Assembly (NCBI GenBank): GCA_024224415.1
Contig: JAAENK010000337.1
Span: forward strand, 1 to 32,159
Direction of reading: 5' to 3'
Origin: Gammaproteobacteria bacterium
GTDB taxonomy: Bacteria; Pseudomonadota; Gammaproteobacteria; GCA-001735895
DNA length: 32,159 bases
Under the pieces are notes generated by a model. It was not told where the DNA came from. It saw only the letters and a list, made by a program, of their open reading frames with translations, and searched no databases. A program made the translations under genes and the position numbers. Shown here one piece after another: positions 6,074-32,159 of the stretch (position 1 is its first letter; each line of letters opens with the position of its first letter).

Positions 6074-6202
6074 ATGAATACTGAACAATACCTAAAAGAA
6101 CGTATCGATGATCAAATTGAGTGGTCGCAGAACCTGCACAGTGCTAGCAACGGAAGTAATGAATGGCTGCCAGGTAGTGTTCAAACCTCTGTGCCAGACT
6201 AG
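6074..6202 (+). CDS. Small ORF, 42 aa, possible SLATT/DUF4231 remnant
   Basis: A 42-codon ORF begins at ATG 6074, preceded by a good Shine-Dalgarno (AGGGG at 6063-6067, six-base spacing). The N-terminus 'YLKERIDDQIEW' resembles the start of DUF4231/SLATT-type membrane proteins (Y-x-x-x-R-x-D-D-Q-x-x-W). The similarity stops there, and the rest (Ser/Asn-rich, ending VPD) has no membrane segment. It may be the broken 5' end of a SLATT gene or an independent small protein. Both readings are inference; no continuation is obvious in the other frames. Confidence 0.4.
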   Translation: MNTEQYLKERIDDQIEWSQNLHSASNGSNEWLPGSVQTSVPD

Positions 6203-6271
6203 ATCGAAACTAATACACATTATGCCCTTTTTTTTCGAAGGCTATTACGTTTTGAAAAAACCAATTATATT

Positions 6272-7468: not shown

Positions 7469-7655
7469 AATCTCAATGAATTTAGTCCTTTATGAGCCTG
7501 AGAGATGATGTAGTTTGCAACGTTCACTCAGTTAGAGTCAACCCTGAACTTTATATGCTGACTCAAACCCCGGTCAGTTGTACTGTCTAATAAAACAAGA
7601 TACGTCAATGACTTCTAAGTTTGAGCGGCACTAATGTAATGAACCATCCAAACAA

Positions 7656-9476
7656 CTACTCCACCGTAACAGACTTGGCCAAATTCCTTGGTTGATCCAC
7701 ATCCGTTCCTCGTTGCACGGCAACGTAATAACTCAATAACTGCAAGGGAATAGTCGATAAAATCGGTGTGGTCCATCGCGTTTCGCAATCCATTTCAACG
7801 ACTACATCTTCTCCTGGTTCCTCAAGTTTGGCGCCCTGGTGGGCGAATACATACAACTTGCCACCACGGGCTTTGACTTCCTGCATATTGGAATGCAGTT
7901 TTTCCAGCAAGCCATCATTTGGCGTGACGACGACTACCGGCATCTCGGCATCCACTAGCGCCAGTGGGCCGTGTTTGAGTTCACCAGCGGGGTAGGCTTC
8001 GGCATGGATGTAGGATATTTCCTTGAGTTTTAATGCGCCTTCCATCGCAATTGGATAATGCACGCCACGGCCCAGAAATAACGCGTGGTGTTTGTCGATA
8101 AAATTTTCAGCAATGGCTTCGATTTGTTTATCGAGGAAAAGCAGCGACTCTATCTGGCGTGGCAATGCAATAAGTTCTCGCACGATGTCACTGATGATGG
8201 TTTTATCCATACTCCTTACCTTGCCAATCGAAATTGCCAGCAACAGCAGCGAGACTAATTGCGTGGTGAAGGCTTTGGTCGACGCGACGCCAATTTCAGG
8301 GCCAGCGCGTGTCATTAACACCAGGCTGGATTCGCGCACCAAAGACGACTCGGGAACATTGCAGATACTCACTGAGCCGCAGTAGTCTTCCATCGGCAAA
8401 TTGCGTAACGCCGCCAGCGTGTCGGCTGTTTCACCCGATTGCGACAGAGTGACGAATAATGTATCTTTGGGAACGACCGATTGTCGATATCGAAACTCAC
8501 TGGCGACTTCAATTGCGCAGGGTCGTCCCAGCAATTCTTCGATCCAGTACTTGGCTACATACCCGGCGTGGTAACTGGTGCCACAGGCGACGATTTGTAT
8601 TTGTTCAACCTGTTTAAATATTCGTTCCGACTCAGGGCCAAATACTGAATCGAGCACGTTGTTTTCGCTGATTCGTCCTTCCAGGCAATCGGCTACAGCT
8701 TTAGCTTGCTCGTGGATTTCCTTGAGCATGTAGTGTTTGTAATTGCCTTTGTTGATCGCGTCGGCTGATAGTTCGGTTGTGTTAATCGTTAATTCTTTTG
8801 CCTCGCCATTGGCGTCATATACCTGATAGTCATTTTGACTGATAACAACCAGGTCACCTTCTTCGAGATAGATAAAACGATTGGTAACAGGTAATAGCGC
8901 GGATACATCGGAAGCGACAAAATTCTCCTTAATGCCAAGGCCGACCACCAGCGGGCTACCTTTGCGGCAAGCAACCAGTGTATTCGGATCATCGCTGACG
9001 ATAACACCGAGGCCGAATGTACCTTCTAGTTGGTCGACAGCCTTTTGTACAGCGGCAAGCAAATCACCATCGAAGTAACTTTCGATTAAATGTGCGACAG
9101 TCTCGGTATCAGTCTCTGATTCGAACTCATAACCGTCCGCCAGCAGTTTTGTGCGGATATCCTTGTAATTCTCGATAATACCGTTATGCACCAGTGCGAT
9201 TTTTTGGCGCGAAAAATGCGGGTGTGCATTGTTTTCGGAAGGCACACCATGGGTAGCCCAACGGGTGTGCGCGATACCAATGGCGCCAGCTTGATTTGGA
9301 TTAACCTTAACGGCGAGTTCGTTGACCTTACCCAACGCTCGAAAGCGCTGCAGTTTATTGTCGTCGATTAAGGCAATGCCAGCCGAATCATATCCGCGAT
9401 ACTCCAGGCGCCTGAGACCTTCGATCAGGATTGAACTAACATCGCGTTGCGCTACCGCGCCGACTATTCCACACAT
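7656..9476 (-). CDS. glmS: Glutamine--fructose-6-phosphate aminotransferase
   Basis: GlmS converts fructose-6-phosphate and glutamine to glucosamine-6-phosphate and glutamate, the first committed step of amino-sugar synthesis. At 606 residues it has the usual length. The class II glutaminase domain starts 'MCGIVGAV', with Cys2 as nucleophile after Met removal, and contains 'RWATHG' and 'HNGIIENY'. Two SIS sugar-isomerase domains follow ('CGTSYHAG', 'SQSGETADT', 'STKAFTTQ', 'GRGVHYPIAMEGALKLKEISYIHAEAY'), and the C-terminus is the conserved 'PRNLAKSVTVE' tail. It begins four bases after glmU ends, so the two form an operon that makes UDP-GlcNAc for peptidoglycan and LPS. I see no self-cleaving riboswitch upstream, as expected for this lineage. 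Confidence 0.98.
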   Translation of the reverse strand: MCGIVGAVAQRDVSSILIEGLRRLEYRGYDSAGIALIDDNKLQRFRALGKVNELAVKVNPNQAGAIGIAHTRWATHGVPSENNAHPHFSRQKIALVHNGIIENYKDIRTKLLADGYEFESETDTETVAHLIESYFDGDLLAAVQKAVDQLEGTFGLGVIVSDDPNTLVACRKGSPLVVGLGIKENFVASDVSALLPVTNRFIYLEEGDLVVISQNDYQVYDANGEAKELTINTTELSADAINKGNYKHYMLKEIHEQAKAVADCLEGRISENNVLDSVFGPESERIFKQVEQIQIVACGTSYHAGYVAKYWIEELLGRPCAIEVASEFRYRQSVVPKDTLFVTLSQSGETADTLAALRNLPMEDYCGSVSICNVPESSLVRESSLVLMTRAGPEIGVASTKAFTTQLVSLLLLAISIGKVRSMDKTIISDIVRELIALPRQIESLLFLDKQIEAIAENFIDKHHALFLGRGVHYPIAMEGALKLKEISYIHAEAYPAGELKHGPLALVDAEMPVVVVTPNDGLLEKLHSNMQEVKARGGKLYVFAHQGAKLEEPGEDVVVEMDCETRWTTPILSTIPLQLLSYYVAVQRGTDVDQPRNLAKSVTVE

Positions 9477-20224: not shown

Positions 20225-22110
20225 GCTGATTTTTCGATAGACAGTGAGTGGCGCTTTAGATGTACCAGTAACAGCGAAATTGCGGCCGGTGTCACACCAG
20301 AGATACGACCCGCCTGACCAACAGTGGCCGGACGATGATCCTGCAATTTCTGGCAGGCTTCATTTGACAGGCCTCGCACCTTTTTGTAATCCAGCGTCTC
20401 CGGCAATGCAGTTTGTTCGTGCTGGCTGGCTTTATCGATTTCTTCCTGCTGCCGGGATAGATAGCCTGCATACTTGCACACAGCTTCAGCCTGCTCGCGC
20501 ACACGCGTTGAGAATTGCTCTCGATTATCGATTAACGGCATCAAATGCTCTATCTCTATTTCCGGGCGCTTGAGAATGTCACCAAAGCGGTACTCACGCG
20601 TCACCGAATTTTGTAAAACTGGATTGAGCGCATCCGCCTCCATGGTATCCGGACGCAACCAGCTTTCCTGCAAGCGCTGATTAAGCAACTCAAGCTGTTC
20701 GCGGTAGTTTTCGAAAGCCGCCCAGCGGTCATCTTCAACCAGACCCATATTCCGGCCGATTTCAGTCAGGCGCAAATCCGCATTGTCTTCACGCAACATC
20801 AAACGATATTCCGCACGCGAAGTAAACATCCGATACGGTTCTTTGGTGCCACGTGTAATCAAATCGTCGACCAGCACACCAAGATATGCCTGCGAACGCG
20901 ACAATTGCAATGCTACCTTATCCTGAACCGATGCCGCCGCATTAGCTCCCGCCATCAAACCTTGCGCACCGGCTTCTTCGTAGCCGGTGGTACCATTGAT
21001 CTGCCCGGCAAAATACAGGCCCGCGATAAAACGAGTTTCCAGTGTCGGACGTAAATCTCGAGGATCGAAAAAATCGTATTCAATCGCGTAACCAGGCTGT
21101 GTGATTTCGGCATTCTCAAACCCAACAATACTGTTCACATACGCCTGTTGTATATCGAATGGCAGACTCGTGGAAATGCCGTTGGGATAGACCTCGCCCA
21201 GCGTTAGACCTTCGGGTTCTACAAATATCTGGTGCGAAGTACGCTCGGCAAAACGCACCACCTTGTCTTCAATCGACGGACAATAACGTGGCCCGACGCC
21301 TTCAATTTCGCCGCTAAACAAAGGCGAACGATGCAGGCTATCCCGAATAATCTGGTGTGTGATTGCGTTGGTGTGGGTGATATAACAACTGATTTGCTGT
21401 GGATGCATGTCCACCGTCGCCATGGTCGAAAATACTGGTAGAGAGCTATCGCCAGGTTGTTCTTGGAGTTTACTGAAATCAATAGTTTTACGGTCAAGAC
21501 GTGGCGGTGTGCCAGTTTTTAGTCGTTCGACTCGGAAAGGACGTTCACGCAGACGAGCAGCCAAAGCCGTCGCAGGCGGATCACCAGCTCGACCCCCGCC
21601 GTAGTTAGCATCACCGATATGAATCCTGCCACCGAGGAAGGTTCCCACCGTGAGCACAACACTAGGTGCCATAAAGCGCAAACCCATTTGGGTGAGCACA
21701 CCTTCTACTCTGCCATTGCTTTCGATTAAATCAACAACTGGTTGCTGAAAAATAGATAGATTCGGCTGGTTTTCAAGCTTTTTACGGATGGCAATACGAT
21801 AAAGCTGCCGGTCGGCCTGCGCTCGGGTGGCCCGCACCGCCGGACCCTTGCGGCGATTGAGTATGCGAAACTGAATACCCGCTTTGTCTGCGGCAAGTGC
21901 CATTTCACCGCCGAGCGCATCAATTTCTTTCACCAGATGGCCTTTACCGATGCCGCCAATCGCCGGGTTGCAACTCATTTGCCCCAGGGTATCGATATTA
22001 TGCGTCAACAATAAGGTCTTCACACCCATGCGCGCAGCCGCCAGCGCAGCTTCGGTCCCCGCGTGACCGCCGCCGACTACGATGACATCGAAGCGCGTGT
22101 TGAAATCCAT
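20221..22110 (-). CDS. mnmG: tRNA uridine-5-carboxymethylaminomethyl modification enzyme MnmG
   Basis: With MnmE, MnmG installs the cmnm5 group at wobble U34 of tRNA. The 629-residue protein has the FAD-binding '[21 protein letters not shown]', '[15 protein letters not shown]', '[22 protein letters not shown]', 'RATRAQADR', '[20 protein letters not shown]' and a C-terminal helical domain that binds MnmE. The frame begins within the conserved N-terminus at ATG 22110. In many gammaproteobacteria oriC lies just upstream, but the 126-base gap here has no recognisable DnaA boxes. Confidence 0.98.
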
Positions 22111-22194
22111 GGATATCAGTTTCGCTAAAAAGGGGCGCGGATTCTAGCGGCTTTTGGGGATTATTGCATTTCTAATTTGGAAGGCACTTATGTA

Positions 22195-22211
22195 AAGCAT
22201 GGGCAATGCTT
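22195..22211. repeat. Short hairpin between dctM-like gene and mnmG
   Basis: AAGCAT (22195-22200) and ATGCTT (22206-22211) are exact reverse complements around a five-base loop. It lies 26 bases after the stop of the TRAP large permease gene. No T-run follows on the minus strand, so if it terminates the TRAP operon it is weak. The rest of the 22111-22236 gap must also contain the mnmG promoter, which I could not place with confidence. Confidence 0.3.
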
Positions 22212-22236
22212 CCGAAATAGTTTGACCGAATAAACC

Positions 22237-23556
22237 TTAACTCCCCATCAGCGAAGGCAAATAAAGTGCAATTGAAGGAATAAACAACAGCAACAACAAG
22301 CGGATGATATCGACGATCCAGAATGGTGTGACACCTTTGAATATAGTGCCAAGCCGCACGTCACCCAGTACGCCTTTCAAAACAAATACGTTTAGCCCAA
22401 CTGGCGGTGTGATCAGACTGATTTCAGTGACGACAACAATGACTATGCCAAACCAGATCAATACCTGATCAGCCGGCATGATATCGCCGAAATCGAGTCC
22501 GAGAACCAGCGGATAAAAAACTGGCACGGTGAGCAAAATCATCGACAGGCTCTCCAGCACACAGCCTAGCAGCACGTAAATCATCAGGATTAGCAGTACC
22601 ACCATCATGGGTGACAGGTTATGGGAGAGTACCCACTCAGAAAGTATCGAAGGCATACCGATGATATTGATATAGTTGGAGAATACCAGTGCACCGATCA
22701 GTATGGTAAAGATCATCGCTGTGGTACGCACGCTGTCTATAAGTATGTCGACCAGGCTGGAAAGGCTCAGGCGCTTTCGCAGCAGGGCAAACAGGAATGC
22801 ACCGAAAGCACCGATACCCGCAGCCTCGGTGGGTGTGAATACGCCGCCGTAGATGCCACCAATCACCACTATGAACAATAGCAACACTCCCCACACACCT
22901 CGCAGTGCAACCAGCCGCTGATGCCAGTCACTGCGCTCACCACGGGGTCCGGTTTTGGGGTACAACCGAACGGTGGCGAATACTGCCACCAGATAAAGTC
23001 CAATGCCCAACAACCCGGGTAGAATACCGGCGATGAACAGCTTGCCAATATCCTGTTCGGTCATAATACCGTAGATCACCAGTATTACGCTGGGGGGGAT
23101 AAGAATGCCGAGAGTACCGCCAGCCGCGATGGCACCGGTGGCCAGGCTATCGGCATAGCCATAACGTCGCATCGGCGGCATTGCCACCTTGGACATAGTT
23201 GCCGCAGTAGCCAGGCTAGACCCGCACACGGCGCTAAATCCACCGCAAGCCACAATAGTAGCCATCGCCAGACCGCCACGTCGATGACCAAGAAACGCAT
23301 TGGAAGCCGCATACAGCTCATCGGATAAACCCGCCCTGCTGACGAAGTTACCCATCAGCACAAACATAGGCACGACCGAGAGACCGTAGGAAAGACCGGT
23401 TTCATAAGTGACGGTAGTCACCATGGCAAGCGCCGGGCTCCAGTCGGTCATCAGGCCGAAACCGACAAACCCGACCAGCCCCATGGCGAAGGCGATGGGC
23501 ACACGCATTGCTACTAGCGCAAGCAGCGCAACAATAGCAATAAGAGATTCCTGCAT
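22237..23556 (-). CDS. TRAP transporter large permease (DctM family)
   Basis: This is the ion-coupled transport subunit of a tripartite ATP-independent importer. The 439-residue protein is very hydrophobic, with about 12 membrane segments. Landmarks are 'VPMFVLMGNFVSRAGLSDELY', 'FSAVCGSSLATAATMSKVAMPPMRRYGY', 'GGTLGILIPPSVILVIYGIMTEQDIGKLFIAGILPG', 'GVFTPTEAAGIGAF' and 'EISLITPPVGLNVFVLKGV', all DctM hallmarks. It is the last gene of the three-gene TRAP set and begins 23 bases after the small permease ends. Substrate cannot be read from this subunit. Confidence 0.96.
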   Translation of the reverse strand: MQESLIAIVALLALVAMRVPIAFAMGLVGFVGFGLMTDWSPALAMVTTVTYETGLSYGLSVVPMFVLMGNFVSRAGLSDELYAASNAFLGHRRGGLAMATIVACGGFSAVCGSSLATAATMSKVAMPPMRRYGYADSLATGAIAAGGTLGILIPPSVILVIYGIMTEQDIGKLFIAGILPGLLGIGLYLVAVFATVRLYPKTGPRGERSDWHQRLVALRGVWGVLLLFIVVIGGIYGGVFTPTEAAGIGAFGAFLFALLRKRLSLSSLVDILIDSVRTTAMIFTILIGALVFSNYINIIGMPSILSEWVLSHNLSPMMVVLLILMIYVLLGCVLESLSMILLTVPVFYPLVLGLDFGDIMPADQVLIWFGIVIVVVTEISLITPPVGLNVFVLKGVLGDVRLGTIFKGVTPFWIVDIIRLLLLLFIPSIALYLPSLMGS

Positions 23557-23579
23557 AGCTGGTTATTCTTCTGTTTTTC

Positions 23580-24098
23580 TTAAGGAGATGAGGGGCGACG
23601 GAATTGCTGCCAGGCCAACATGAGGAACACCAGACCGGTAATGCCCAGCGCAATACTCATGAAGTAAAACATCGGTGCAAACGGGATATGGAGCACAGCG
23701 GTCACATCCCCATAATCCACTGCCTCGTTGCCCTTTTCCCAGAGTCGTATTGACACTACCGCCATTATGACCGTAGCTAGCAGTGAGATTAATATATCGC
23801 GAAAACGACCAATGGCGCCGGGGAAAAACTTGTCCAACAAGTCGACTGTAACATGCTCTCCACCTGAACTCACCAACGGTAAGCCGGCAAAGATCAGGGT
23901 GGCGAGCATGATTTCGGTAACCTCAAAGCCACCCGGGATTGGGTAATTCAAGACATAACGACCGACGACATCAGCAAAGGTAAGCAACATCATTAAAAAC
24001 AACAAAACTGCTGCGAAACCACCGAGCAGCCAGTACAGAACAAACTGTACCCGCCGCCCGGTCTTTAAGACATAAACATCGTCAGCCTGTGGATCCAC
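23580..24098 (-). CDS. TRAP transporter small permease (DctQ family)
   Basis: This is the small membrane subunit that scaffolds DctM. The 172-residue protein has four hydrophobic segments, with the family stretch 'LTFADVVGRYVLNYPIPGGFEVTEIML' and 'LVSSGGEHVTVDLL'. The start is GTG at 24098, sharing one base with the TAG stop of the dctP-like gene, and has an AAGG about six bases upstream. This points to translational coupling with the binding protein. Confidence 0.92.
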   Translation of the reverse strand: MDPQADDVYVLKTGRRVQFVLYWLLGGFAAVLLFLMMLLTFADVVGRYVLNYPIPGGFEVTEIMLATLIFAGLPLVSSGGEHVTVDLLDKFFPGAIGRFRDILISLLATVIMAVVSIRLWEKGNEAVDYGDVTAVLHIPFAPMFYFMSIALGITGLVFLMLAWQQFRRPSSP

Positions 24099-25120
24099 TA
24101 ATTACCTTCAAGCTTCTTGATCTCAGCCCGCAGGTCGGCCATCAAACTAGCGCCATCGACACCCTTTCCACCGGCAGCTTTAACCCAGTCAGCCTCAATA
24201 CTTGAGGTGGCTCCCTTGATTTCACCGATCAGACCAGCACCCGCAGTAATCACGGCAACACCGTCGGCTTTCATCGCGGCAACACCCGCTGTATCGGCAT
24301 TATCCCATCCCTTACCAGCGATACGCGCAAAGTTCTCACCTGATGCGCGGCTTATCGCATCCTGATCGGCTTGCGAAAGCTTGCTGAATTTTTTCGGATT
24401 CATCACTAAAAAGAAACTCGTGTTATACAAACCGCCAGGTACTAACGTGGCATGCTTGATGAGCTTGGTCAGTTTGAATGACTTGATAGATTCCTTGGGA
24501 AAGAAAACACCGTCTGCCACACCATTTGAGAGTAACTCATAAGATTTGGGTGCTGGCTTAAGCAGTGAAGTTGCACCAATTGCCTTGGAGACGTCATTGA
24601 TGACACCACCACCGACACGAATTTTCAAACCACTAAGATCAGCGAGTTTCTTAATTGGACGTTTGGCGTTGTACATCTGACCCGGACCATGAGTCATCAA
24701 ACCAAGTAGCTTTACGCCTTTATGCTCGTTGGCTTGTTCCATATGCTTTTTATGCATACGCCAGTATGCAACCGAAGTTGCTTCGGCACTGTCACCCAGA
24801 AACGGCATTTCTACGGCCTTGGTCAACAGGAAGCGTCCAGGCTGATAACCATGCACACCATAAGTAATATCTGCCACACCATCTTTAGCCAGGTCAAAAT
24901 GGGCAGGAGGCGCTCCCAGAGGTTTGGCCAAAAGATTAATTTTAATCCGCCCTGCACTTTCTTTTTCTACCGCAGCCATCCAGGGCTTAATCATGTCGGC
25001 GACAATCGGATGGGTAGGTGGCAGCCATGACGAAAGGTTAAGCGTCGTTGCCGCACTGGCCAGAGATGCACTGCCTAATAGCAGGCTCGCAGCCATGGTT
25101 ATGGTAAATTTTTTCATCAT
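24098..25120 (-). CDS. TRAP transporter substrate-binding protein (DctP family)
   Basis: This periplasmic receptor delivers an organic acid to the DctQM permease. The 340-residue protein has a signal peptide (about residues 1-23, cleavage after ASA). The mature part starts 'TTLNLSSWLPPTHP', a DctP-like opening. 'DLSGLKIRVGGG' carries the Arg that in most DctP proteins binds the substrate carboxylate, and 'LSNGVADGVFFP' is the second landmark. A carboxylate ligand is therefore likely but its identity is not. A strong GGAGG precedes ATG 25120. The gene lies downstream of the TetR gene on the same strand with a 90-base gap. Confidence 0.93.
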   Translation of the reverse strand: MMKKFTITMAASLLLGSASLASAATTLNLSSWLPPTHPIVADMIKPWMAAVEKESAGRIKINLLAKPLGAPPAHFDLAKDGVADITYGVHGYQPGRFLLTKAVEMPFLGDSAEATSVAYWRMHKKHMEQANEHKGVKLLGLMTHGPGQMYNAKRPIKKLADLSGLKIRVGGGVINDVSKAIGATSLLKPAPKSYELLSNGVADGVFFPKESIKSFKLTKLIKHATLVPGGLYNTSFFLVMNPKKFSKLSQADQDAISRASGENFARIAGKGWDNADTAGVAAMKADGVAVITAGAGLIGEIKGATSSIEADWVKAAGGKGVDGASLMADLRAEIKKLEGN

Positions 25121-25210
25121 TAAAGATATCCTCCGGTATATTTAAAATCTAGATTATTCTGGTAGTCGGCAATGCCGAATAAATCATTATTCCATAAAAC
25201 TCGTAGTAAA

Positions 25211-25798
25211 TCACAGGGATTCTTTATCGACATAAAGCAGACCCTGTGAACTCATTGTAAAGAAAGTATCAATAACATCAGGGATACTGATTGACTGACC
25301 AGGATTAAACCAACGCGAAACCCAATTACACATTCCCAGAACCCCAAGGGCTACTATCCGGGGATCAAGATCGGGATTGAATTCTTTACTAGCCTGTCCT
25401 TCGCACACCAGATCAACCCAGAGTTCTGTCATGTCTTGCCAGAGCTTATGCAGCTCATCAAGCTTTTTCTTGTCTTTAAAGTAGTGATTTTCACGCATCA
25501 ATATCGACATTTCCAGATACCCAGGATTGTAGCTATCCAACTGTACTCGAATGGCTTCATGTAGTTTGTCTTTAGCGCTATGGTGGGTTGCCATAACATT
25601 TCGCAGGTTGCGATGTAAAGTGGTGCTTTGAGGTAGAATGATTTCCAGCAGAATATCTTCAAGGCTTTTGAAATAATAATAAATGGCTTCACGCTTGAGA
25701 CCAACTGCTTCTGCAATATTCTCAATTGAAGTATGCGCAACCCCTTTGCGTGCAAAAATTTCAGCGGCTCGCCTTAAAATTTCATGCCTTCTCGACAT
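25211..25798 (-). CDS. TetR family transcriptional regulator
   Basis: This is a DNA-binding repressor released by a small ligand, probably an acyl-CoA or the transported acid. The 195-residue protein has the TetR helix-turn-helix at about residues 10-48 ('AAEIFARKGVAHTSIENIAEAVGLKREAIYYYFKSLEDIL'). The divergent C-terminal helical domain is of the length seen in regulators of fatty-acid-like catabolism. It faces the acyl-CoA ligase operon across a 189-base gap with two inverted repeats, and is followed by the TRAP genes. Control of both is the simplest reading. Confidence 0.93.
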   Translation of the reverse strand: MSRRHEILRRAAEIFARKGVAHTSIENIAEAVGLKREAIYYYFKSLEDILLEIILPQSTTLHRNLRNVMATHHSAKDKLHEAIRVQLDSYNPGYLEMSILMRENHYFKDKKKLDELHKLWQDMTELWVDLVCEGQASKEFNPDLDPRIVALGVLGMCNWVSRWFNPGQSISIPDVIDTFFTMSSQGLLYVDKESL

Positions 25799-25832
25799 CG
25801 CTCAGTACATTCTCCTTGGTCAATCCGAAGTA

Positions 25833-25847
25833 TTTACACTTTGTAAA
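25833..25847. promoter_or_regulatory. Candidate TetR operator 1 (TTTACA-CTT-TGTAAA)
   Basis: A perfect 6-bp inverted repeat around CTT, centred at 25840, lies 35 bases before the tetR start. Its TTTAC/GTAAA arms recur in the second repeat at 25896-25913. Size and position fit an autoregulatory TetR site. Confidence 0.5.
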
Positions 25848-25895
25848 ATTGCGCTTTTAACAATACGTTGAATGGCTATATCGCGCAAGCATAAG

Positions 25896-25913
25896 TTTTA
25901 CGTTACCGTAAAA
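25896..25913. promoter_or_regulatory. Candidate TetR operator 2 (TTTTACG-TTAC-CGTAAAA)
   Basis: A perfect 7-bp inverted repeat with a four-base spacer lies 75 bases before the acyl-CoA ligase ATG. It shares its TTTAC/GTAAA arms with the repeat at 25833-25847. It is the best palindrome in the gap and is placed to control the plus-strand catabolic operon. Confidence 0.6.
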
Positions 25914-25987
25914 ACATCTTTACTTCAGGGTCCATTTGGGCTAGTTTTGGACTTAAAAGAGGTGGGAATAATCGAGAGAAACGCACA

Positions 25988-27508
25988 ATGAACCTGGCTG
26001 ACTGGGTTGATCGACACGCCGGATTTACCCCGGAGAAAGCTGCTCTGTGTTTTCAGGAAAAGACTCTAAGCTATGCCAAACTGGCTAAACAGGTGGCCCT
26101 ACTGGCAGACGTACTGTGCAACAACCTAGGGCTTGTTAAAGGAGATCGGGTTGCTTTCGTAGGATACAACAGTCCGGAAATGCTGACTCTATTACTGGCC
26201 TGTGCACGCAGCGGAGTGATCTTTCTTCCATTAAACTGGCGACTGGCCCCTGCCGAGCATTGTTTCATTCTTGATGACTGTTCACCAAAAGCTTTTTTCG
26301 TTGGTGCAGAATTCACATCACAGGTAGAGAGTCACCGTGATCAAATCAAATGCCCCAACCTGGTCAGTTACGGCGAAACCCGGGCGGAATGGCATAACTA
26401 CTCAGAGCTTTTCACAGGCGCCAGGGAAATGACTGGCAGGCAATCCGATGTAGGCTATGACGCAGCTGTTTTACTGTGTTACACCTCAGGAACCACAGGA
26501 CAACCCAAAGGTGTATTACTCGATCAAAACGCACTGCTTTACACCGCTATCAACAGCGTACACATGCACGACATGACCAGTTCGGACCGTATCCTGTCTA
26601 CTCTACCAATGTTTCATGTCGGTGGTTTGAATATCCAGACACTGGCTGCTCTGCACACCGGTGCAACTATTTACCTGCATGCCGGATTCGATCCAGTGGA
26701 TGTGCTGCATGATCTTGAAGAACAGGCCATTAATCTGGCTGTACTCGTACCAGCACAACTCCTGGCTTTGCTTGATTTACCGAGCTGGCAACAGGCAGAT
26801 TTTGCCAGCCTACGCTCGATAACAACCGGATCCACGCTGATACCCAAATCACTCATAGAAACCATTTGTCAACGCGGAGTGCCATTGATACAGGTCTATG
26901 GCTCTACTGAAACAGCACCAATTGCCGCCTATCTGAAAGCTGAAGATGCAGCACAGCACATTGGATCAACTGGGAAAGCTGCATTGCATTGCGATATCCG
27001 TCTTGTCGATGCTGAAAATCAGGATGTTGATCAAGGCTGCAGCGGAGAGATCCTGGTGCAAGGTCCAAATGTAATGATCAGCTACTGGAATGCTCCGGAT
27101 GAAACCGCAGCAACACTGAAAAACGGATGGTTTCACACCGGTGATAGTGGGTATATGGATCCAGATGGTTATTTATACGTAGATGGCCGAATCAAGGATA
27201 TGATTATTAGCGGTAGTGAGAATATCTACCCTGGAGAATTGGAGAACCTGCTATTAGAACACCAATCGATCACCGAAGCCGCAGTAGTAGGCCGCCCCGA
27301 CGAGCGCTGGGGCGAAGTACCCGTGGCCGTTGTTGTAAGCTCAGATGCAACCCTGGATGCCGCCGATGTTACTGCCCTTTTTGAAAACCGGCTGGGTCGT
27401 TTCAAACATCCCCGAGATGTGGTTTTTGTGGACAGCCTGCCCCGCAATGCAATGGGAAAAATTCAGAAACATGAAATCATGAAAATGGTGGAAGAGGTAC
27501 AGCAATGA
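25988..27508 (+). CDS. Acyl-CoA ligase (adenylate-forming enzyme)
   Basis: This enzyme activates a carboxylic acid to its CoA thioester through an acyl-AMP intermediate. The 506-residue protein has the P-loop 'YTSGTTGQPKG' (165-175), 'VYGSTETAP', and 'WFHTGDSGYMDPDGYLYVDGRIKDMIISGSENIYPGELE' with the hinge region. The C-terminal catalytic Lys491 is in 'RNAMGKIQKHE'. It has the length of class I acyl/aryl-CoA synthetases. It is the first gene of the plus-strand operon and overlaps the next by ATGA, so its product probably feeds the following acyl-CoA enzymes. The substrate may be the acid imported by the adjacent TRAP system. Confidence 0.94.
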   Translation: MNLADWVDRHAGFTPEKAALCFQEKTLSYAKLAKQVALLADVLCNNLGLVKGDRVAFVGYNSPEMLTLLLACARSGVIFLPLNWRLAPAEHCFILDDCSPKAFFVGAEFTSQVESHRDQIKCPNLVSYGETRAEWHNYSELFTGAREMTGRQSDVGYDAAVLLCYTSGTTGQPKGVLLDQNALLYTAINSVHMHDMTSSDRILSTLPMFHVGGLNIQTLAALHTGATIYLHAGFDPVDVLHDLEEQAINLAVLVPAQLLALLDLPSWQQADFASLRSITTGSTLIPKSLIETICQRGVPLIQVYGSTETAPIAAYLKAEDAAQHIGSTGKAALHCDIRLVDAENQDVDQGCSGEILVQGPNVMISYWNAPDETAATLKNGWFHTGDSGYMDPDGYLYVDGRIKDMIISGSENIYPGELENLLLEHQSITEAAVVGRPDERWGEVPVAVVVSSDATLDAADVTALFENRLGRFKHPRDVVFVDSLPRNAMGKIQKHEIMKMVEEVQQ

Positions 27509-28638
27509 CATTTCAACTTTCTGACGAGCAAAAAGCCACACGCGACGTCATCGCGCGTTTTTCTGATGAGCAAATTGCACCACGTGCTGAAGAGATGGAC
27601 GAGTCACACGCTTACCCATACGAACTATTTAGCCAACTCGCTGAGCTGGGGTTTTTCGGCATGCGCTATCCAGAATCCGTGGGTGGCTCCGGGATGGATT
27701 TGAGTTGCTTTTGCCTCGCTCTCGAAGAAGTTGCGCGTGGCTCCATGTCGCTAGCTGGCGCTGTAGCGATGCAATCGCTAATGGGTACCGAGTTTTTACA
27801 CCAGCTTGGTAACGATGACATTAAAGAGCGCTTATTCAAACCCGCTTTAAAGGGTGAGAAAATTGGCGCAATCTGCATGACTGAACCCAATGCCGGTAGT
27901 AATCTTGGTGCTATCAGCACCACTGCCACACGGGTCGACGGCGGCTACAGTATTAAGGGTCAGAAAATGTGGGTTACATCAGCTCCGGTCGCAGACTTTT
28001 TTACCGTCTTTGCCAAAGCCGGGGAAGAAAACAGGCTGACTATTTTCCTCGTCGAAAAAGATATGCCAGGGCTGATTGTGGGGCGAGCCATTAAAAAAAT
28101 GGGCGTTTGGGCGCTACCAACTTCAGAGGTAGTTTTTGACGATTGCTTCGTACCAGAAACCCATCGTCTGAGCGCCGAAGAGGGAGATGGCGAAGCTCAT
28201 TTACATAAGTTACTCGCCGAGATTCGAATCATAACAGGTGCAATGGCACTCGGCATTGCCCGCGCCGCACTGGATGCTGCTATCGGTTATGCCGCTGAGC
28301 GCGAGCAGTTCGGCAAACCAATCAATCGCTTTCAGGCAATCCAGCTCAAACTGGCAGAAATGGGCACCGACCTCGAAGCCGCCAGGCAACTGGTTTATCA
28401 CGCCGCCAGCCGCAAACAGAACGGCGAAGCACATCACAAAGAAGCCGCCATGGCCAAACTATTCGCCAGCGAAGCTGCTGCCAGTATTTGTGACAAAGCT
28501 GCCAGAGTTGCAGCGTCCTACGGATTCGCAATGGAATATCCTTTTCAACGTTATTTACGCGATGTTCGCTTTACCCTGATCGGCGGCGGCACCAGCGAAC
28601 TTTTAAAATTAAATATAGCCAGGGAGCTTTGCAAATGA
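27505..28638 (+). CDS. Acyl-CoA dehydrogenase-like flavoprotein with altered catalytic position
   Basis: The 377-residue protein has the complete acyl-CoA dehydrogenase fold. It carries an N-terminal helical domain, FAD/substrate loops 'ICMTEPNAGSNL' (123-134) and 'KMWVTSA' (154-160), the 'REQFGKPINRFQAIQLKLAEM' helix and 'YPFQRYLRDVRFTLIGGGTSEL'. Against short-chain dehydrogenases (EIYEGTSEI) the catalytic Glu position is Gly361. The alternative base position used by isovaleryl-CoA dehydrogenase aligns with Ile240, with Glu239 one residue away. It may use another residue as base or catalyse a non-standard reaction. FAD binding looks intact. It overlaps the ligase and mutase genes by ATGA. 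Confidence 0.92.
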   Translation: MTFQLSDEQKATRDVIARFSDEQIAPRAEEMDESHAYPYELFSQLAELGFFGMRYPESVGGSGMDLSCFCLALEEVARGSMSLAGAVAMQSLMGTEFLHQLGNDDIKERLFKPALKGEKIGAICMTEPNAGSNLGAISTTATRVDGGYSIKGQKMWVTSAPVADFFTVFAKAGEENRLTIFLVEKDMPGLIVGRAIKKMGVWALPTSEVVFDDCFVPETHRLSAEEGDGEAHLHKLLAEIRIITGAMALGIARAALDAAIGYAAEREQFGKPINRFQAIQLKLAEMGTDLEAARQLVYHAASRKQNGEAHHKEAAMAKLFASEAAASICDKAARVAASYGFAMEYPFQRYLRDVRFTLIGGGTSELLKLNIARELCK

Positions 28639-29036
28639 GCACTCAACCAGTCCCCTTCAAAGTTTTGATAGCAAAACCGGGGTTAGACGGACATGACCAG
28701 GGCGCAAAGGTCATTGTGCGAGCCCTGGCCGAGGCAGGTTTCGAAGTAATTTATACGGGCCTGAGGCAAACCCCGGAAGCCGTTGCCGCTATAGCGCTGG
28801 AAGAAGGCGTCGATGTGATTGGCCTGTCCAGTATGGCCGGGTCACATTTACCTTTTTGTCGGCGACTTGCAGTACTGCTCAAGGAGCAGGAGCTAGATGA
28901 AAAACTCTGGTTGATTGGGGGCAACATACCCGCTCAGGATCACCAGCAGCTACGAGATATTGGTCTCGACGGCATTTTCCCTACGGGAGCCCGTTTTGAC
29001 GAAATAACCGACTTTATCAATGCGGAGCTATCATGA
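28635..29036 (+). CDS. B12-binding subunit of acyl-CoA mutase
   Basis: This is the cobalamin-carrying subunit of a two-protein acyl-CoA mutase. The 133-residue protein has the base-off B12 signature D18-G-H20-D-Q-G23, with His20 as the expected lower cobalt ligand. It continues with 'GLSSMAGSH' and 'GGNIP', which wrap the nucleotide tail. The ATG at 28635 is preferred over a TTG at 28629 because it forms an ATGA overlap with the upstream gene and has AGGGAG eight bases away. It overlaps the catalytic-subunit gene by ATGA. Split small subunits are known from archaeal methylmalonyl-CoA, isobutyryl-CoA and 2-hydroxyisobutyryl-CoA mutases. Confidence 0.94.
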   Translation: MSTQPVPFKVLIAKPGLDGHDQGAKVIVRALAEAGFEVIYTGLRQTPEAVAAIALEEGVDVIGLSSMAGSHLPFCRRLAVLLKEQELDEKLWLIGGNIPAQDHQQLRDIGLDGIFPTGARFDEITDFINAELS

Positions 29037-30637
29037 CTGAATATACCGAAGACGGTCGGGTGATCAATGAATCCGGCATTGAGATCAAACCCGTCTATGG
29101 CCCCGAAGATGTAGCAGCCGGTAGTGGGCTCGACATGCTGGGGGAACCTGGAGAATACCCCTTTACCCGCGGCATCCACCGTGAGATGTACCGCAAACGA
29201 CCATGGACTATGCGCCAGTATGCCGGGTTTGGCAACCCGTCTGATACCAATCAACGTTTCAAATACCTCATTGATAATGGCCAGACCGGTCTAAATGTAG
29301 CATTCGATCTCCCCACCCAGATTGGACTTGATTCGGATGATCCACTGGCCGTTGGCGAAGTGGGGCGTGTCGGTATGGCAATTGATAGCCTGCGTGATTT
29401 TGAAATAGCCTTCGGTGGTATTGATCTTGAAAAAATCACCGTCTCGCTAACCATCAATGGTTCCGCCGCCATCGCCATCGCCATGTATCTGGCCATGGCT
29501 GAAAAACGCGGTTATAACATCAACATGCTTCGTGGCACAGCTCAAAACGATATTTTGAAAGAGTTTATTGGTCGCGGAACCTGGATTTTTCCTGTGGAGC
29601 CATCGGTAAAACTGGTCTGTGACACCATTGAATACTGTGCCGAGCATGCACCCAAATACAGCCCTGTAAGTGTTTGTGGTTATCACATCAGGGAATCAGG
29701 CGCGAACCCGGTTCAGGAAATCGCCTATGCATTTTGTATCGCCAAAGCCTATGCAGACGAAACGCTAAAGCGCGGGTTGAAAATTGATGAATTCGCCGGA
29801 CGTCTTTCCTACAACCTGAATATCTTCGGCAACCTGTTTGAGCAAGTCGCCAAATTCCGTGCCGCTCGCGGATTATGGGCCAAAATTGTTAAAGAAGAAT
29901 ACGGTGCTACCGACCCCAAATCCATGTGGTTACGCATGATTGCCGGTGGCGGGGGAGGTGGTTTAACATCCGAGCAGCCCGAATTGAATATTGTGCGCGG
30001 TGCTTATTACGCATTGATCTCAGCATTATCAGGAACCCAGACTATGGCGCTTTGCTCCTACGATGAGGCATACACCATCCCCACCGAATACTCTGCACGC
30101 ATTTCACTGCGAACCATGCAATTACTCACCGATGAAATGGGCCTGTGCGATACTGTTGACCCGCTGGCTGGCTCTTATTACGTCGAGACACTCACTAACG
30201 AAATGCGTAGTGAGATCGAGAGAATCATGGCGGAGACCGATGCTGCGGGAGGCATTGTACAAATGGTTTCAACTGGAGAAATTCAATCCGGGGTTTCCGC
30301 ACAAGCCTACGAGATGCAAAAAGACCTGCAATCCGGCAAGTTCCGTAAGGTAGGCGTAAACCGCCATCGTATCGATGAAGAAGAACGCGAGGTGGAATTT
30401 CACTCATACAGAGAAGAAGATGCCCAGCTTCAAATTGAAAGCCTGAACCAGGTTCGTTCAGAACGCCATGCCAGCCTGGTAGAACAAAGCCTGGCTCGAG
30501 TTAAACGCGATGCCGATGCAGGTAAAAACGTAATGCCCGCCATCATGGACGCGGTAAAGGCCTACGCCACCGTGGGCGAAATTACCAATAAGCTGGTCGA
30601 ATCCTATGGCCGCTATCAGGAACCAATTCGGTTTTAG
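29033..30637 (+). CDS. Acyl-CoA mutase catalytic subunit (methylmalonyl-CoA mutase family)
   Basis: This is the TIM-barrel subunit that rearranges acyl-CoA carbon skeletons by adenosylcobalamin radicals. The 534-residue protein lacks a B12 domain, which the preceding gene supplies. Residues that bind the substrate in Propionibacterium methylmalonyl-CoA mutase are kept: Tyr63 (Tyr89), Gln171 (Gln197), Arg181 (Arg207), His218 (His244), Arg257 (Arg283) and Ser259 (Ser285). Tyr plus Arg points to a substrate with a free carboxylate rather than isobutyryl- or 2-hydroxyisobutyryl-CoA. In contrast His328 and Gln330 are replaced by Ile303 and Gly305 within a six-Gly run (305-310), and Asn366 by Cys341; Glu370 is kept as Glu345. 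I infer a divergent clade with an unassigned reaction. No MeaB/ArgK chaperone gene is in the window. Confidence 0.92.
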   Translation: MTEYTEDGRVINESGIEIKPVYGPEDVAAGSGLDMLGEPGEYPFTRGIHREMYRKRPWTMRQYAGFGNPSDTNQRFKYLIDNGQTGLNVAFDLPTQIGLDSDDPLAVGEVGRVGMAIDSLRDFEIAFGGIDLEKITVSLTINGSAAIAIAMYLAMAEKRGYNINMLRGTAQNDILKEFIGRGTWIFPVEPSVKLVCDTIEYCAEHAPKYSPVSVCGYHIRESGANPVQEIAYAFCIAKAYADETLKRGLKIDEFAGRLSYNLNIFGNLFEQVAKFRAARGLWAKIVKEEYGATDPKSMWLRMIAGGGGGGLTSEQPELNIVRGAYYALISALSGTQTMALCSYDEAYTIPTEYSARISLRTMQLLTDEMGLCDTVDPLAGSYYVETLTNEMRSEIERIMAETDAAGGIVQMVSTGEIQSGVSAQAYEMQKDLQSGKFRKVGVNRHRIDEEEREVEFHSYREEDAQLQIESLNQVRSERHASLVEQSLARVKRDADAGKNVMPAIMDAVKAYATVGEITNKLVESYGRYQEPIRF

Positions 30638-30652
30638 AGGTTAAGCAATACA

Positions 30653-31495
30653 ATGACAGATATCCAATCCTACCAGGTCCCTGCTTCGCTCGCCGAGGCA
30701 ACCGCCATTCTGGCAAACGGCGACGTTAGTATTTTGGCCGGTGGCACCGATCTTATGTTGCAGAAAAATCTGCATGGCGGCACGTTGATGAATATTCGGC
30801 GTCTTGAGGAACTACACGGCATCCAGCTAAGCGGGAACACGATTCGCATCGGGGCCGTGACCACCATTACCAAGATACTTGAAAGCCCGCTGATCGAGAA
30901 ACACTTGCCGATACTACATGAAGCTACCAACCATTTCGCTTCTGTACAGATTCGCAATGCCGGAACAATCGGTGGCAATATCTGCAACGCCTCACCAGCA
31001 GGTGACACTCTGATACCGCTGCTGGTGCTTGATGCGCAGGTAGAGCTAGCCAGTGCCGCAGATACCCGTCTGATACCTATTGCTGACTTCTTCATCGCCC
31101 CTGGTAAGACCAGCCGCGAACCGGGTGAGCTATTAACCGCCATACATATTCCGCAGCCGGCAGAAGGTTTTGTAGCCTGCTTTGAAAAGTTTGGCAGCAG
31201 GCCAGCGTTGGATATTTCTACAGTATCAATAGGTATTGGGGGCATCCTGCAAGATAGTAAATTACAGGCTGCACGAGTAGCTTTTGGTGCAGTTGCACCC
31301 ATACCACTACTGGCTAAAAAAACCATGGCGGCCATCGAAAATCAAACGCTGGATGTCGATGGAATTCAGACCATAGCCACCGCTGCCAGGGATGAAGTCA
31401 ATCCCATCGATGACGTTCGTGCCAGCGCCTGGTATCGCAAAGAATTGATTCACAACCTAACCAGAAAGGTATTACAAAATGTCGCTAACACGTGA
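30653..31495 (+). CDS. Molybdenum hydroxylase FAD subunit (xanthine dehydrogenase family subunit M)
   Basis: This FAD-binding medium subunit passes electrons from the Mo/Fe-S subunits to an acceptor. The 280-residue protein has the FAD motifs 'ILAGGTDLML' and 'QIRNAGTIGGNICNASPAGD', then 'LISR'-type spacing to 'KFGSRPALDISTVSIGIG', and the C-terminal CO-dehydrogenase flavoprotein domain. It follows the mutase by 15 bases and overlaps the Fe-S subunit by 17, so it belongs to the same operon. Relatives include xanthine dehydrogenase, 4-hydroxybenzoyl-CoA reductase and 2-furoyl-CoA dehydrogenase. The last two act on CoA thioesters, which would suit this operon. Confidence 0.93.
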   Translation: MTDIQSYQVPASLAEATAILANGDVSILAGGTDLMLQKNLHGGTLMNIRRLEELHGIQLSGNTIRIGAVTTITKILESPLIEKHLPILHEATNHFASVQIRNAGTIGGNICNASPAGDTLIPLLVLDAQVELASAADTRLIPIADFFIAPGKTSREPGELLTAIHIPQPAEGFVACFEKFGSRPALDISTVSIGIGGILQDSKLQAARVAFGAVAPIPLLAKKTMAAIENQTLDVDGIQTIATAARDEVNPIDDVRASAWYRKELIHNLTRKVLQNVANT

Positions 31496-31952
31496 AATTA
31501 ATTTCACCTTAAACGGTAGCCCCGTGAAGGTGACAGTTCCAGTTACCATGAATACTTTGACACTGTTACGCGAGCAGCTAAACCTGACTGGAACCAAATA
31601 CGGTTGCGGCGAAGGAGAGTGTGGGGCATGTACCATTTTGATGGATGGCGTAAGCGTAAACGCCTGCCTGATGTTCGCAGTAGATTGCGATGGCAGACAG
31701 CTAACCACAGTTGAGGGATTGCTCACCGATTGTGACAGTGATCCGTTGCGTAATGCTTTTGTAGAAAAAGGCGGTGTGCAATGTGGCTTTTGTTCACCAG
31801 GCATGATGATGCAGGCAACGCATATACTCAAACAAAACCCCAACGCCGACCGTGAGCAAATCCAGCGCGGTCTCGAAGGTAATCTGTGTCGTTGCACCGG
31901 TTACAAAAAAATTGTCGATGCCGTCGCCAGCGTCAGCAAGCACGAAGATTGA
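31479..31952 (+). CDS. Molybdenum hydroxylase 2Fe-2S subunit
   Basis: This small electron-transfer subunit carries two [2Fe-2S] clusters. The 157-residue protein has the plant-ferredoxin-type set Cys43, Cys48, Cys51 and Cys63 ('GCGEGECGACT'). The second set is Cys102, Cys105, Cys137 and Cys139 ('QCGFCSPGM', 'NLCRCTGY'). All eight ligands are present. It sits between the FAD and Mo subunit genes with an AAGG ahead of the ATG at 31479. Length is normal for the family. Confidence 0.95.
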   Translation: MSLTREINFTLNGSPVKVTVPVTMNTLTLLREQLNLTGTKYGCGEGECGACTILMDGVSVNACLMFAVDCDGRQLTTVEGLLTDCDSDPLRNAFVEKGGVQCGFCSPGMMMQATHILKQNPNADREQIQRGLEGNLCRCTGYKKIVDAVASVSKHED

Positions 31953-31963
31953 GGTAATCGAAA

Positions 31964-32159
31964 ATGTCTCAGGTCGCAAAACAAATTCTAGAAAAAGACA
32001 CCCTCATCGGTAAACACGTCCCCAAACTGGATGCCCCTGCGAAAGTGAGCGGCAGGGCATTATATACCACGGATATTAAATTGCCCAACATGCTGCACGC
32101 CAAGATTTTAAGGAGCCCATATGCCCATGCCAGAGTGGTTCGAATTGAGACAGGCCAAG
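31964..32159 (+). CDS. Molybdenum hydroxylase large (molybdopterin) subunit, 3' end cut by window
   Basis: An open frame runs from ATG 31964 to the window edge (65 residues, no stop). 'IGKHVPKLDAPAKVSGRALYTTDI' and 'LPNMLHAKILRSPYAHARV' are the standard N-terminus of xanthine dehydrogenase-type molybdopterin subunits. Full-length relatives are about 750 residues, so most of the protein, including the Mo site and the catalytic Glu, lies outside. It follows the Fe-S subunit by 11 bases and completes the three-subunit hydroxylase. Confidence 0.92.
   Translation, partial: MSQVAKQILEKDTLIGKHVPKLDAPAKVSGRALYTTDIKLPNMLHAKILRSPYAHARVVRIETGQ

What the first reader, a model, noticed from the sequence alone, without database searches (positions are those of the whole stretch)
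22237..32159. Catabolic island joining TRAP import, CoA ligation, a split B12 mutase and a molybdenum hydroxylase
A TetR regulator sits between a three-gene TRAP transporter and a tightly overlapping operon of acyl-CoA ligase, acyl-CoA dehydrogenase-like protein, B12 subunit, mutase and an XDH-family hydroxylase. I cannot match this combination to a named pathway. The order suggests that an imported carboxylate is activated to CoA, rearranged by the mutase and oxidised or hydroxylated. XDH relatives that act on CoA esters (4-hydroxybenzoyl-CoA reductase, 2-furoyl-CoA dehydrogenase) make a fully CoA-bound route possible. The substrate is unknown.
Basis: partly seen in the sequence, partly recalled or inferred. 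Interest (0 to 1): 0.8.

Follow-up and report, generated by a model that had tools for sequence, protein, structure and literature searches.

The report
Anaerobic auxin (indoleacetate) degradation gene island
The genes most likely let an uncultured bacterium take up the plant hormone auxin (indoleacetate) and break it down by a known oxygen-independent route, here in a form whose usual ring-opening enzyme is missing from its place and probably replaced by a distant relative encoded elsewhere in the genome.

Summary
The unnamed pathway is the iaa route of indoleacetate degradation known from Aromatoleum. The acyl-CoA dehydrogenase carries the GGG motif reported for IaaF (decarboxylating benzylmalonyl-CoA dehydrogenase) in place of YEG, as do all 69 of the 83 sequences compared in which it could be read, window included. 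The mutase falls in a clade apart from nine other acyl-CoA mutases (100% SH-aLRT). The contig ends inside the molybdenum subunit; the rest of it and an IaaL-type CoA transferase lie at the end of contig C343. The same genome holds the core benzoyl-CoA reductase pathway. Three departures: (1) The canonical lactamase pair (HyuAB) is absent between ligase and dehydrogenase. A distant pair on contig C221 is 55-63% identical to pairs upstream of 8 other such clusters that lack the canonical pair; no locus has both. (2) Indolepyruvate oxidoreductase-like genes lie downstream, suggesting tryptophan as a second source. (3) A TRAP transporter and TetR regulator adjoin the cluster. Ordinary in kind; the probable enzyme replacement is the new point.

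The parts
22237..23556 (-). TRAP transporter large permease (DctM)
   Evidence: TIGR00786 307.9 bits over cut-off 268.45; 75% identical DctM beside the G054 cluster
23580..24098 (-). TRAP transporter small permease (DctQ)
   Evidence: PF04290 86.4 bits over 28.3
24098..25120 (-). TRAP solute-binding protein (DctP); probable indoleacetate/arylacetate binding protein (inference)
   Evidence: PF03480 107.8 bits over 23.4; DctP relatives of 54-65% identity in the loci of G054, L039, L051, L064
25211..25798 (-). TetR-family regulator, probably of the cluster (inference)
   Evidence: PF00440 and PF17932 over cut-off; relatives of 49-60% identity in the loci of G054, L082, L087, L089, L095
25988..27508 (+). 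acyl-CoA ligase in the position of indoleacetate-CoA ligase IaaB
   Evidence: AMP-binding family (no NCBIfam equivalog reached its cut-off); 61% to the G054 ligase; its stop overlaps the next start by 4 bases, so HyuAB is missing at this junction
27505..28638 (+). IaaF-type decarboxylating (aminobenzyl)malonyl-CoA dehydrogenase
   Evidence: GGG at residues 360-362 where three solved homologues have YEG (alignments); same motif in 69 of 69 sequences that could be read, this one included; motif described in PMC8360864
28582..28590 (+). codons of the diagnostic GGG motif of IaaF
   Evidence: position counted from the alignment
28629..29036 (+). B12-binding small subunit of the mutase (IaaG position)
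   Evidence: TIGR00640 125.2 bits over cut-off 57.45
29033..30637 (+). large subunit of (aminophenyl)succinyl-CoA / (aminobenzyl)malonyl-CoA mutase (IaaH position)
   Evidence: TIGR00641 592.8 bits over 303.8; separate clade, 100% SH-aLRT; Y63, R181, H218 and the loop M-x-A-x-GGG-x-GLT in 83 of 83 sequences, this one included
30653..31495 (+). XDH-family FAD subunit, proposed indoleacetyl-CoA hydroxylase/dehydrogenase
   Evidence: PF00941, PF03450 over cut-off
31479..31952 (+). XDH-family 2Fe-2S subunit of the same enzyme
   Evidence: PF00111, PF01799 over cut-off
31964..32159 (+). first 65 codons of the molybdenum subunit, cut by the contig end; the remainder (80% to G054) is at G000:C343:45149-47275

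Best explanation
The island encodes an iaa-type pathway for indoleacetate degradation that needs no oxygen. Proposed steps: (1) TRAP uptake of indoleacetate (inferred). (2) The ligase makes indoleacetyl-CoA. (3) The three-subunit molybdenum enzyme hydroxylates C2 of the indole with water, giving 2-oxoindoleacetyl-CoA. (4) An ATP-dependent HyuAB-type gamma-lactamase opens the lactam to (2-aminophenyl)succinyl-CoA; the canonical pair is missing here and the pair on contig C221 is the best candidate. (5) The CaiB-type transferase (C343) moves CoA to the other carboxyl group. (6) The split B12 mutase makes (2-aminobenzyl)malonyl-CoA, probably with the MeaB-type GTPase on C343. (7) The IaaF-type dehydrogenase oxidises and decarboxylates it to 2-aminocinnamoyl-CoA. 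(8) A hydratase/dehydrogenase fusion (C343) and a thiolase (candidate on C321) give 2-aminobenzoyl-CoA and acetyl-CoA. (9) Benzoyl-CoA reductase and ring-cleavage enzymes (C199) continue the route without oxygen. IorAB-like genes on C343 probably feed in tryptophan-derived indoleacetyl-CoA. Gene identities are shown by sequence; the reactions are taken from the Aromatoleum pathway (in part recalled) and were not tested here.
For: Diagnostic GGG motif in the dehydrogenase. Mutase clade separate from nine other acyl-CoA mutases, with the Tyr and Arg positions that bind the free carboxylate in methylmalonyl-CoA mutase kept (role recalled; residues seen). Gene order of relatives, including Aromatoleum toluclasticum (L054) and Candidatus Desulfobacillus denitrificans (L042), follows ligase-HyuA-HyuB-ACAD-B12-mutase-FAD-FeS-Mo-CoA transferase, which fits the iaa gene letters and the functions of IaaB, F, GH and L in PMC8360864. 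Mo subunit and CoA transferase (80% and 74% to G054) at the end of C343. MeaB over its cut-off, and IorA, IorB and hydratase/dehydrogenase-like genes below theirs, on C343. Benzoyl-CoA reductase A, B, C, dienoyl-CoA hydratase, Oah, Had and a BzdR-like regulator over NCBIfam cut-offs on C199. IorA relatives of at least 40% identity in 10 of 83 loci, none of them Pseudomonadota, an independent pointer to indoleacetyl-CoA.
Against: No canonical lactamase pair in the MAG (best 35% and 31%); the MAG is 87% complete, so it may only be unassembled. The thiolase candidate is 61% identical and lies beside a feruloyl-CoA-ligase-like gene and an ammonia-lyase fragment (by eye), not in the island. The A. 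aromaticum EbN1 proteins were not fetched, so orthology to the assayed enzymes rests on motif, clade and gene order. The Mo subunit's residues 4-59 are 52% identical to G054 against 80% for the rest and the two contig ends share no overlap. The IorB, Lrp-like, CoA-transferase and hydratase/dehydrogenase proteins score well below the curated cut-offs of their best NCBIfam models. No enzyme was assayed.
Confidence: 0.9

Rival explanations
1. The cluster handles another arylacetate or aryl-succinate by the same chemistry (for example a substituted indoleacetate or a phenyl analogue); the missing lactamase reflects a substrate without a lactam stage.
For: The canonical lactamase pair is absent. 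IaaF accepts benzylmalonyl-CoA, which lacks the amino group (PMC8360864).
Against: The Mo hydroxylase, the CoA transferase and the other iaa-type parts are kept. The closest relatives L038 and G054 have the canonical lactamase. IorAB-like genes point to indole. A HyuAB pair of the type found beside other clusters of this kind is present on C221.
Confidence: 0.08
2. A short-chain pathway: methylmalonyl-, ethylmalonyl- or 2-hydroxyisobutyryl-CoA mutase with an unrelated XDH enzyme and a fatty acyl-CoA ligase.
For: Best solved-structure hit of the mutase is 2-hydroxyisobutyryl-CoA mutase.
Against: The Ile and Gln positions of that enzyme are Tyr and Arg here; the clade is separate; the dehydrogenase has GGG where the catalytic Glu would be; FAD and FeS genes stand collinear with the mutase in 53 of the 60 sequences holding all five genes.
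Confidence: 0.02
3. Within the iaa reading: the lactamase has not been replaced. The canonical pair exists in this organism but is missing from the assembly, and C221 HyuAB has an unrelated role such as opening another lactam.
For: MAG 87% complete in 347 contigs. The C221 pair is not linked to the island and lies beside an aromatic amino acid decarboxylase-like gene, an OYE-type flavoenzyme and a peptide ABC transporter (by eye; OYE). Five other loci with 9 kb or more upstream hold neither pair type by my limits.
Against: The slot is closed: ligase and dehydrogenase overlap by 4 bases, and they adjoin in the four replacement loci where a ligase was found. The C221 HyuA has no relative above 43% in the other family genomes, and its kin stand upstream of 8 clusters that lack the canonical pair, never with it.
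Confidence: 0.4

Closest known systems
iaa locus of Aromatoleum aromaticum EbN1 and A. evansii KB740 (Ebenau-Jehle et al. 2012 and Schuhle et al. 2016, known here only through PMC8360864, PMC5214803 and PMC9613470)
   Same: Ligase, GGG-type dehydrogenase, split B12 mutase, XDH-type enzyme and CoA transferase; same order as in Aromatoleum toluclasticum (L054) apart from the lactamase
   Different: No canonical lactamase pair in place; TRAP and TetR genes where the A. aromaticum locus has the binding protein IaaM and the regulators IaaQ/IaaR; IorAB-, MeaB- and Lrp-like genes nearby on C343
Related clusters of Bacteroidota, Ignavibacteriota and Krumholzibacteriota (L093, L096, L098, L106, L108, L115, L116)
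   Same: Mutase of the same clade, GGG-type dehydrogenase, HyuB and mostly HyuA, CoA transferase, XDH subunits, IorA and IorB relatives
   Different: Other gene order; thiolase-, RidA- and aminotransferase-like genes in several (by eye); canonical HyuAB kept
ATP-dependent caprolactamase CapAB of Pseudomonas jessenii and the hydantoinase/ketone carboxylase family
   Same: Both HyuAB types hit these models
   Different: All score below the curated cut-off of 1000 bits; HyuA: canonical G054 673.8, C221 533.8, L079 533.7. Neither type is shown to be the caprolactamase
2-hydroxyisobutyryl-CoA mutase (HcmAB) and methylmalonyl-CoA mutase
   Same: Protein family; split subunits as in HcmAB (recalled)
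   Different: Tyr/Arg pair instead of the Ile/Gln of HcmA; human MCM's HCQTSGWSLT stretch is MIAGGGGGGLT here, with the glycines mostly invariant

Membership tests
iaa pathway (indoleacetate degradation) | IaaF-type dehydrogenase with GGG in place of YEG | tested here: met
   alignments; 69 of 69 readable sequences; motif from PMC8360864
iaa pathway (indoleacetate degradation) | Split B12 mutase IaaGH | tested here: met
   Clade with Aromatoleum toluclasticum and others, 100% SH-aLRT; not compared directly with EbN1 IaaGH
iaa pathway (indoleacetate degradation) | Three-subunit molybdenum hydroxylase next to the mutase | tested here: met
   Window FAD and FeS genes; Mo subunit split between C337 and C343
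iaa pathway (indoleacetate degradation) | Family III CoA transferase IaaL after the Mo subunit | tested here: met
   74% to G054 at C343:43946-45130; NCBIfam family III models hit below cut-off
iaa pathway (indoleacetate degradation) | 2-oxoindoleacetyl-CoA gamma-lactamase pair of the canonical type in the cluster | tested here: not met
   Best own-genome hits 35% and 31%; a pair of another type on C221. Hence filed as an iaa-type variant, not as a full member
iaa pathway (indoleacetate degradation) | Ligase specific for indoleacetate | not testable with these tools
   Position and 61% identity to the G054 ligase only
iaa pathway (indoleacetate degradation) | Anaerobic fate of 2-aminobenzoyl-CoA | tested here: met
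   Core benzoyl-CoA reductase pathway genes on C199 over curated cut-offs; the fourth reductase subunit is cut by the contig end; later beta-oxidation steps not checked
2-hydroxyisobutyryl-CoA mutase | Ile at the Tyr89 position and Gln at the Arg207 position (P. shermanii MCM numbering, recalled) | tested here: not met
   Tyr63 and Arg181 in the window mutase and in all 83 sequences; HcmA alignment
canonical methylmalonyl-CoA mutase | HCQTSGWSLT-like stretch and grouping with MCM | tested here: not met

The most novel reading that the evidence does not exclude
iaa pathways exist in versions that differ in the lactam-opening step: a canonical lactamase, and a distant HyuAB family (about 35% and 30% identical to it) that has taken its place in a group of mostly betaproteobacterial MAGs and, separately, in the window's lineage, where it works in trans. 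In the window's organism the same pathway is also fed from tryptophan by IorAB, which makes indoleacetyl-CoA without a ligase, joining tryptophan catabolism to the benzoyl-CoA pathway.
Probability: 0.5. Interest if true: 0.5.

Novelty: new variant of a known kind. Interest (0 to 1): 0.38.

Why it matters
It assigns a substrate and a pathway to an island that looked unnamed, and gives sequence marks for finding it: the published GGG motif of the dehydrogenase and, seen here, an invariant loop (M-x-A-x-GGG-x-GLT) in the mutase, kept in 83 of 83 sequences of a similarity-ranked sample. By the record titles, clusters of this kind occur in many uncultured lineages. It points to a testable replacement of the ring-opening lactamase and to a direct link from tryptophan to the benzoyl-CoA pathway.

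Tried and rejected
Short-chain acyl-CoA mutase readings (methylmalonyl, ethylmalonyl, 2-hydroxyisobutyryl) were rejected on active-site residues and clade. Furoyl-CoA and 4-hydroxybenzoyl-CoA readings of the XDH genes were not supported: the 4-hydroxybenzoyl-CoA reductase models, like all other XDH-type models, scored below their cut-offs, and the genes travel with the mutase and the GGG dehydrogenase. A fused 2-aminobenzoyl-CoA monooxygenase/reductase was looked for through the OYE family; of 12 own-genome hits only three were read (the 741-aa frame on C324, and those on C343 and C221), none was such a fusion by eye, and the other nine were not read. My first guess that the C221 type is the caprolactamase-like one was dropped: the canonical HyuA scores higher on the CapA model (673.8 against 533.8 bits). 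The viral-contig scan with the single protein found no relative. The plasmid search gave 428 records, all under 60% identity. The 2012 paper is not held. Structure prediction and fold search were not used.
Full report
Observation. Every gene in the finding is present at the given place and strand. Ligase and dehydrogenase overlap by four bases, dehydrogenase and B12 subunit by ten (the latter with a TTG start as listed), B12 subunit and mutase by four, FAD and FeS subunits by seventeen. The window is a whole contig, C337, of a metagenome-assembled genome of 3,070,587 bases in 347 contigs, given as 87.31% complete with 4.2% contamination. The contig stops 196 bases into the molybdenum subunit. 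To the left lies ordinary chromosomal sequence: zinc uptake-like genes, glmS, glmU, ATP synthase, parAB, rsmG and mnmG (named by eye).

Relatives. Of 41 genomes of the family, at E <= 1e-50, only the window's own and one 33% hit matched. In the class 19 of 369 genomes matched at E <= 1e-120; apart from the window's own, G054 stood at 83% and the rest at 47% or less. In the phylum 2 of 398 matched at E <= 1e-150: the window's own and G579 at 72%. All counts below refer to 83 sequences: those 80, G054, G579 and the window itself. They are the most similar ones, not a random sample, and many have short flanks.

What the pathway is. In many of these loci the order is ligase, HyuA, HyuB, dehydrogenase, B12 subunit, mutase, FAD, FeS, Mo subunit, CaiB-type CoA transferase, often with a thiolase-like gene in front (thiolase named by eye). 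This is the iaa locus for anaerobic indoleacetate degradation, which I recognised from memory and then checked in the literature. In PMC8360864 (parts 1, 3 and 4 of 6 read) IaaB is the CoA ligase, IaaL the phenylsuccinyl-CoA transferase, IaaGH the mutase, and IaaF a dehydrogenase that oxidises and decarboxylates benzylmalonyl-CoA to cinnamoyl-CoA; it also states that A. aromaticum grows on indoleacetate almost equally well with and without oxygen. PMC9613470 (passages) lists the locus as iaaABCDEFGHIJKLMPQR, leading to 2-aminobenzoyl-CoA. [quoted passage not shown] That the Mo enzyme is the C2 hydroxylase of the indole is recalled from the 2012 work, which is not held.

The sharpest test. PMC8360864 reports that IaaF orthologues have GGG where most other acyl-CoA dehydrogenases have YEG or a variant, the Glu being the base that abstracts the C2 proton. 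The window dehydrogenase reads FTLIGGGTSE where 2dvl, 4l1f and 5lnx have YEG; GGG is residues 360-362. Of the 83 sequences 69 gave a dehydrogenase match of at least 40% identity, and all 69, the window among them, have GGG; the other 14 had no such match in the DNA held.

The mutase. Its nearest solved structure is 2-hydroxyisobutyryl-CoA mutase, but the Ile and Gln of that enzyme are Tyr63 and Arg181 here, as in methylmalonyl-CoA mutase, where they hold the free carboxylate (role recalled). Tyr63, Arg181 and His218 are kept in 83 of 83. Where human methylmalonyl-CoA mutase reads HCQTSGWSLT this clade has a glycine-rich loop, M302-x-A304-x-G306-G307-G308-x-G310-L311-T312, invariant at these named positions in 83 of 83; G305 is Gly in 64 and Ala in 19, G309 is Gly in 66. 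That a smaller loop makes room for an aryl group is inference. A quick maximum-likelihood tree sets the 83 apart from nine other acyl-CoA mutases of the class and family (unnamed; their types were judged by motif) with 100% SH-aLRT; several outgroup branches are long and the tool warns of false joins. The window sits with L038 (88% identity, 99% support), then G054 (93%). At E <= 1e-50 it is the only such mutase in its genome.

The rest of the pathway in this genome. Contig C343 ends in the Mo subunit from residue 61 on (80% to G054), followed by the CoA transferase (74%). The two contig ends share no overlap; by eye the adjoining residues fit within a few codons. The Mo residues on the window side are only 52% identical to G054, though they match other loci of the set at up to 61% over 51 residues. 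Further along C343 lie a small thioesterase-like gene (by eye; no NCBIfam hit), an NnrS-like gene (by eye), an OYE-type gene, an Lrp-like regulator (124.6 bits, cut-off 233), IorA (1127 aa, fused to a GltD-like domain; 599.2 bits, cut-off 650.9), IorB (103.8 bits, cut-off 205.8), MeaB (251.8, cut-off 240.75) and a hydroxyacyl-CoA dehydrogenase/enoyl-CoA hydratase fusion with relatives of 54-62% identity in ten of the loci. Contig C199 carries benzoyl-CoA reductase A, B and C, dienoyl-CoA hydratase, Oah, Had and a BzdR-like regulator, each above its curated cut-off, and a further reductase-ATPase gene cut by the contig end. The Pfam model PF01869 alone would not show this, as it rings in 10 of 14 control genomes. 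A thiolase of 61% identity lies on C321, in other company.

The departure. Where relatives such as G054, L054 and L064 have about four kilobases between ligase and dehydrogenase, filled by HyuAB, the window has none. The MAG holds no canonical pair: the best hits are 35% (HyuA) and 31% (HyuB), whereas canonical pairs are 65-75% (HyuA) and 75-86% (HyuB) identical to G054 in Pseudomonadota, and 47-56% and 64-73% in the distant phyla. The best own hit, on C221, is instead 59-63% (HyuA) and 55-63% (HyuB) identical to pairs lying divergently upstream of eight such clusters (L066, L069, L072, L078, L079, L088, L099, L104). Of 83 sequences, 50 hold the canonical type (two of them, L047 and L053, by a short fragment), 8 the other type, none both, and 25 neither, the window among these. 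Of the other 24, 18 have under 6 kb of upstream DNA and L110 7.2 kb; L080, L086, L092, L107 and L109 have 9 kb or more and hold neither. L092 and L107 have a third HyuAB kind there; L080, L086 and L109 show none. A ligase match was found in four of the eight replacement loci, and there it adjoins the dehydrogenase, as in the window; the other four gave no ligase match in the DNA held. The C221 HyuA has no close relative in its family: 25 of 41 genomes match at E <= 1e-150, but outside its own gene at no more than 43%, which is also the level of the second own-genome gene on C308. The window mutase groups with canonical carriers, so its lineage probably lost the canonical pair separately. The tree needs three changes of pair type among labelled rows, two forced, and the canonical carrier G579 falls among replacement loci, so the history is not simple. 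Against the replacement: C221 is not linked to the island, its neighbours are not iaa genes, and the assembly is incomplete. I put it at about 0.6 given the iaa reading.

Tryptophan link. IorA relatives of at least 40% identity stand in 10 of 83 loci, by title eight Bacteroidota, one Ignavibacteriales and one Krumholzibacteriia (titles), several with an aminotransferase-like gene (by eye). No Pseudomonadota locus of the set reached that limit, L038 and G054 included, so the IorAB-like genes on C343 may be a chance neighbour some 9 kb from the CoA transferase. Indolepyruvate oxidation by IorAB yields indoleacetyl-CoA (recalled), so these clusters and the window's genome can probably reach the pathway from tryptophan. 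Six library searches listed no paper whose title or abstract start joins IorAB with iaa genes or describes a second lactamase type. PMC13290082 (listing only) concerns indoleacetate production by oxidoreductases of this class in gut acetogens. Only open-licence papers are held, and most listed papers were not opened.

Verdict. What is new is a variant: probable replacement of the lactamase, a possible indolepyruvate entry, and TRAP/TetR beside the cluster. DctP relatives (at least 45%) occur in 5 and TetR relatives in 6 of the 83 sequences, the window included.

Noticed in passing
G000:C199 (L161:2-13110): Core genes of a class I benzoyl-CoA reductase pathway with a BzdR-like regulator, a 2-oxoacid:ferredoxin oxidoreductase and a 771-aa gene that looks like a tungsten aldehyde oxidoreductase (by eye; no NCBIfam hit at 1e-40) in the same genome.
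   Followed up: partly
L093, L096, L098, L106, L108, L115, L116: Clusters of this kind in Bacteroidota, Ignavibacteriota and Krumholzibacteriota carry IorA and IorB relatives and an aminotransferase-like gene near the mutase, suggesting a tryptophan-to-2-aminobenzoyl-CoA route; how these organisms would use 2-aminobenzoyl-CoA was not examined.
   Followed up: partly
L092, L107 (HyuAB next to the dehydrogenase): A third HyuAB kind, 39-40% to the canonical HyuA and 34% to the C221 HyuA, lies in the slot of the lactamase.
   Followed up: no
L070: HyuA and HyuB occur twice in mirror image with identical scores (L070:648-4474 minus and 4569-8395 plus), with a dehydrogenase on each side; possibly an assembly artefact or an inverted duplication.
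   Followed up: no
G000:C321 (L155:1-15004): Ammonia-lyase fragment, feruloyl-CoA-ligase-like gene, thiolase, aminotransferase, another TRAP system and a three-gene 2-oxoacid:ferredoxin oxidoreductase stand together (named by eye): a second possible aromatic catabolic island.
   Followed up: no
window 22110-22237: The island begins directly beside mnmG/rsmG/parAB, the usual gammaproteobacterial origin region (recalled), although the mutase was not found at 1e-50 in the other family genomes searched, one 33% hit apart.
   Followed up: partly
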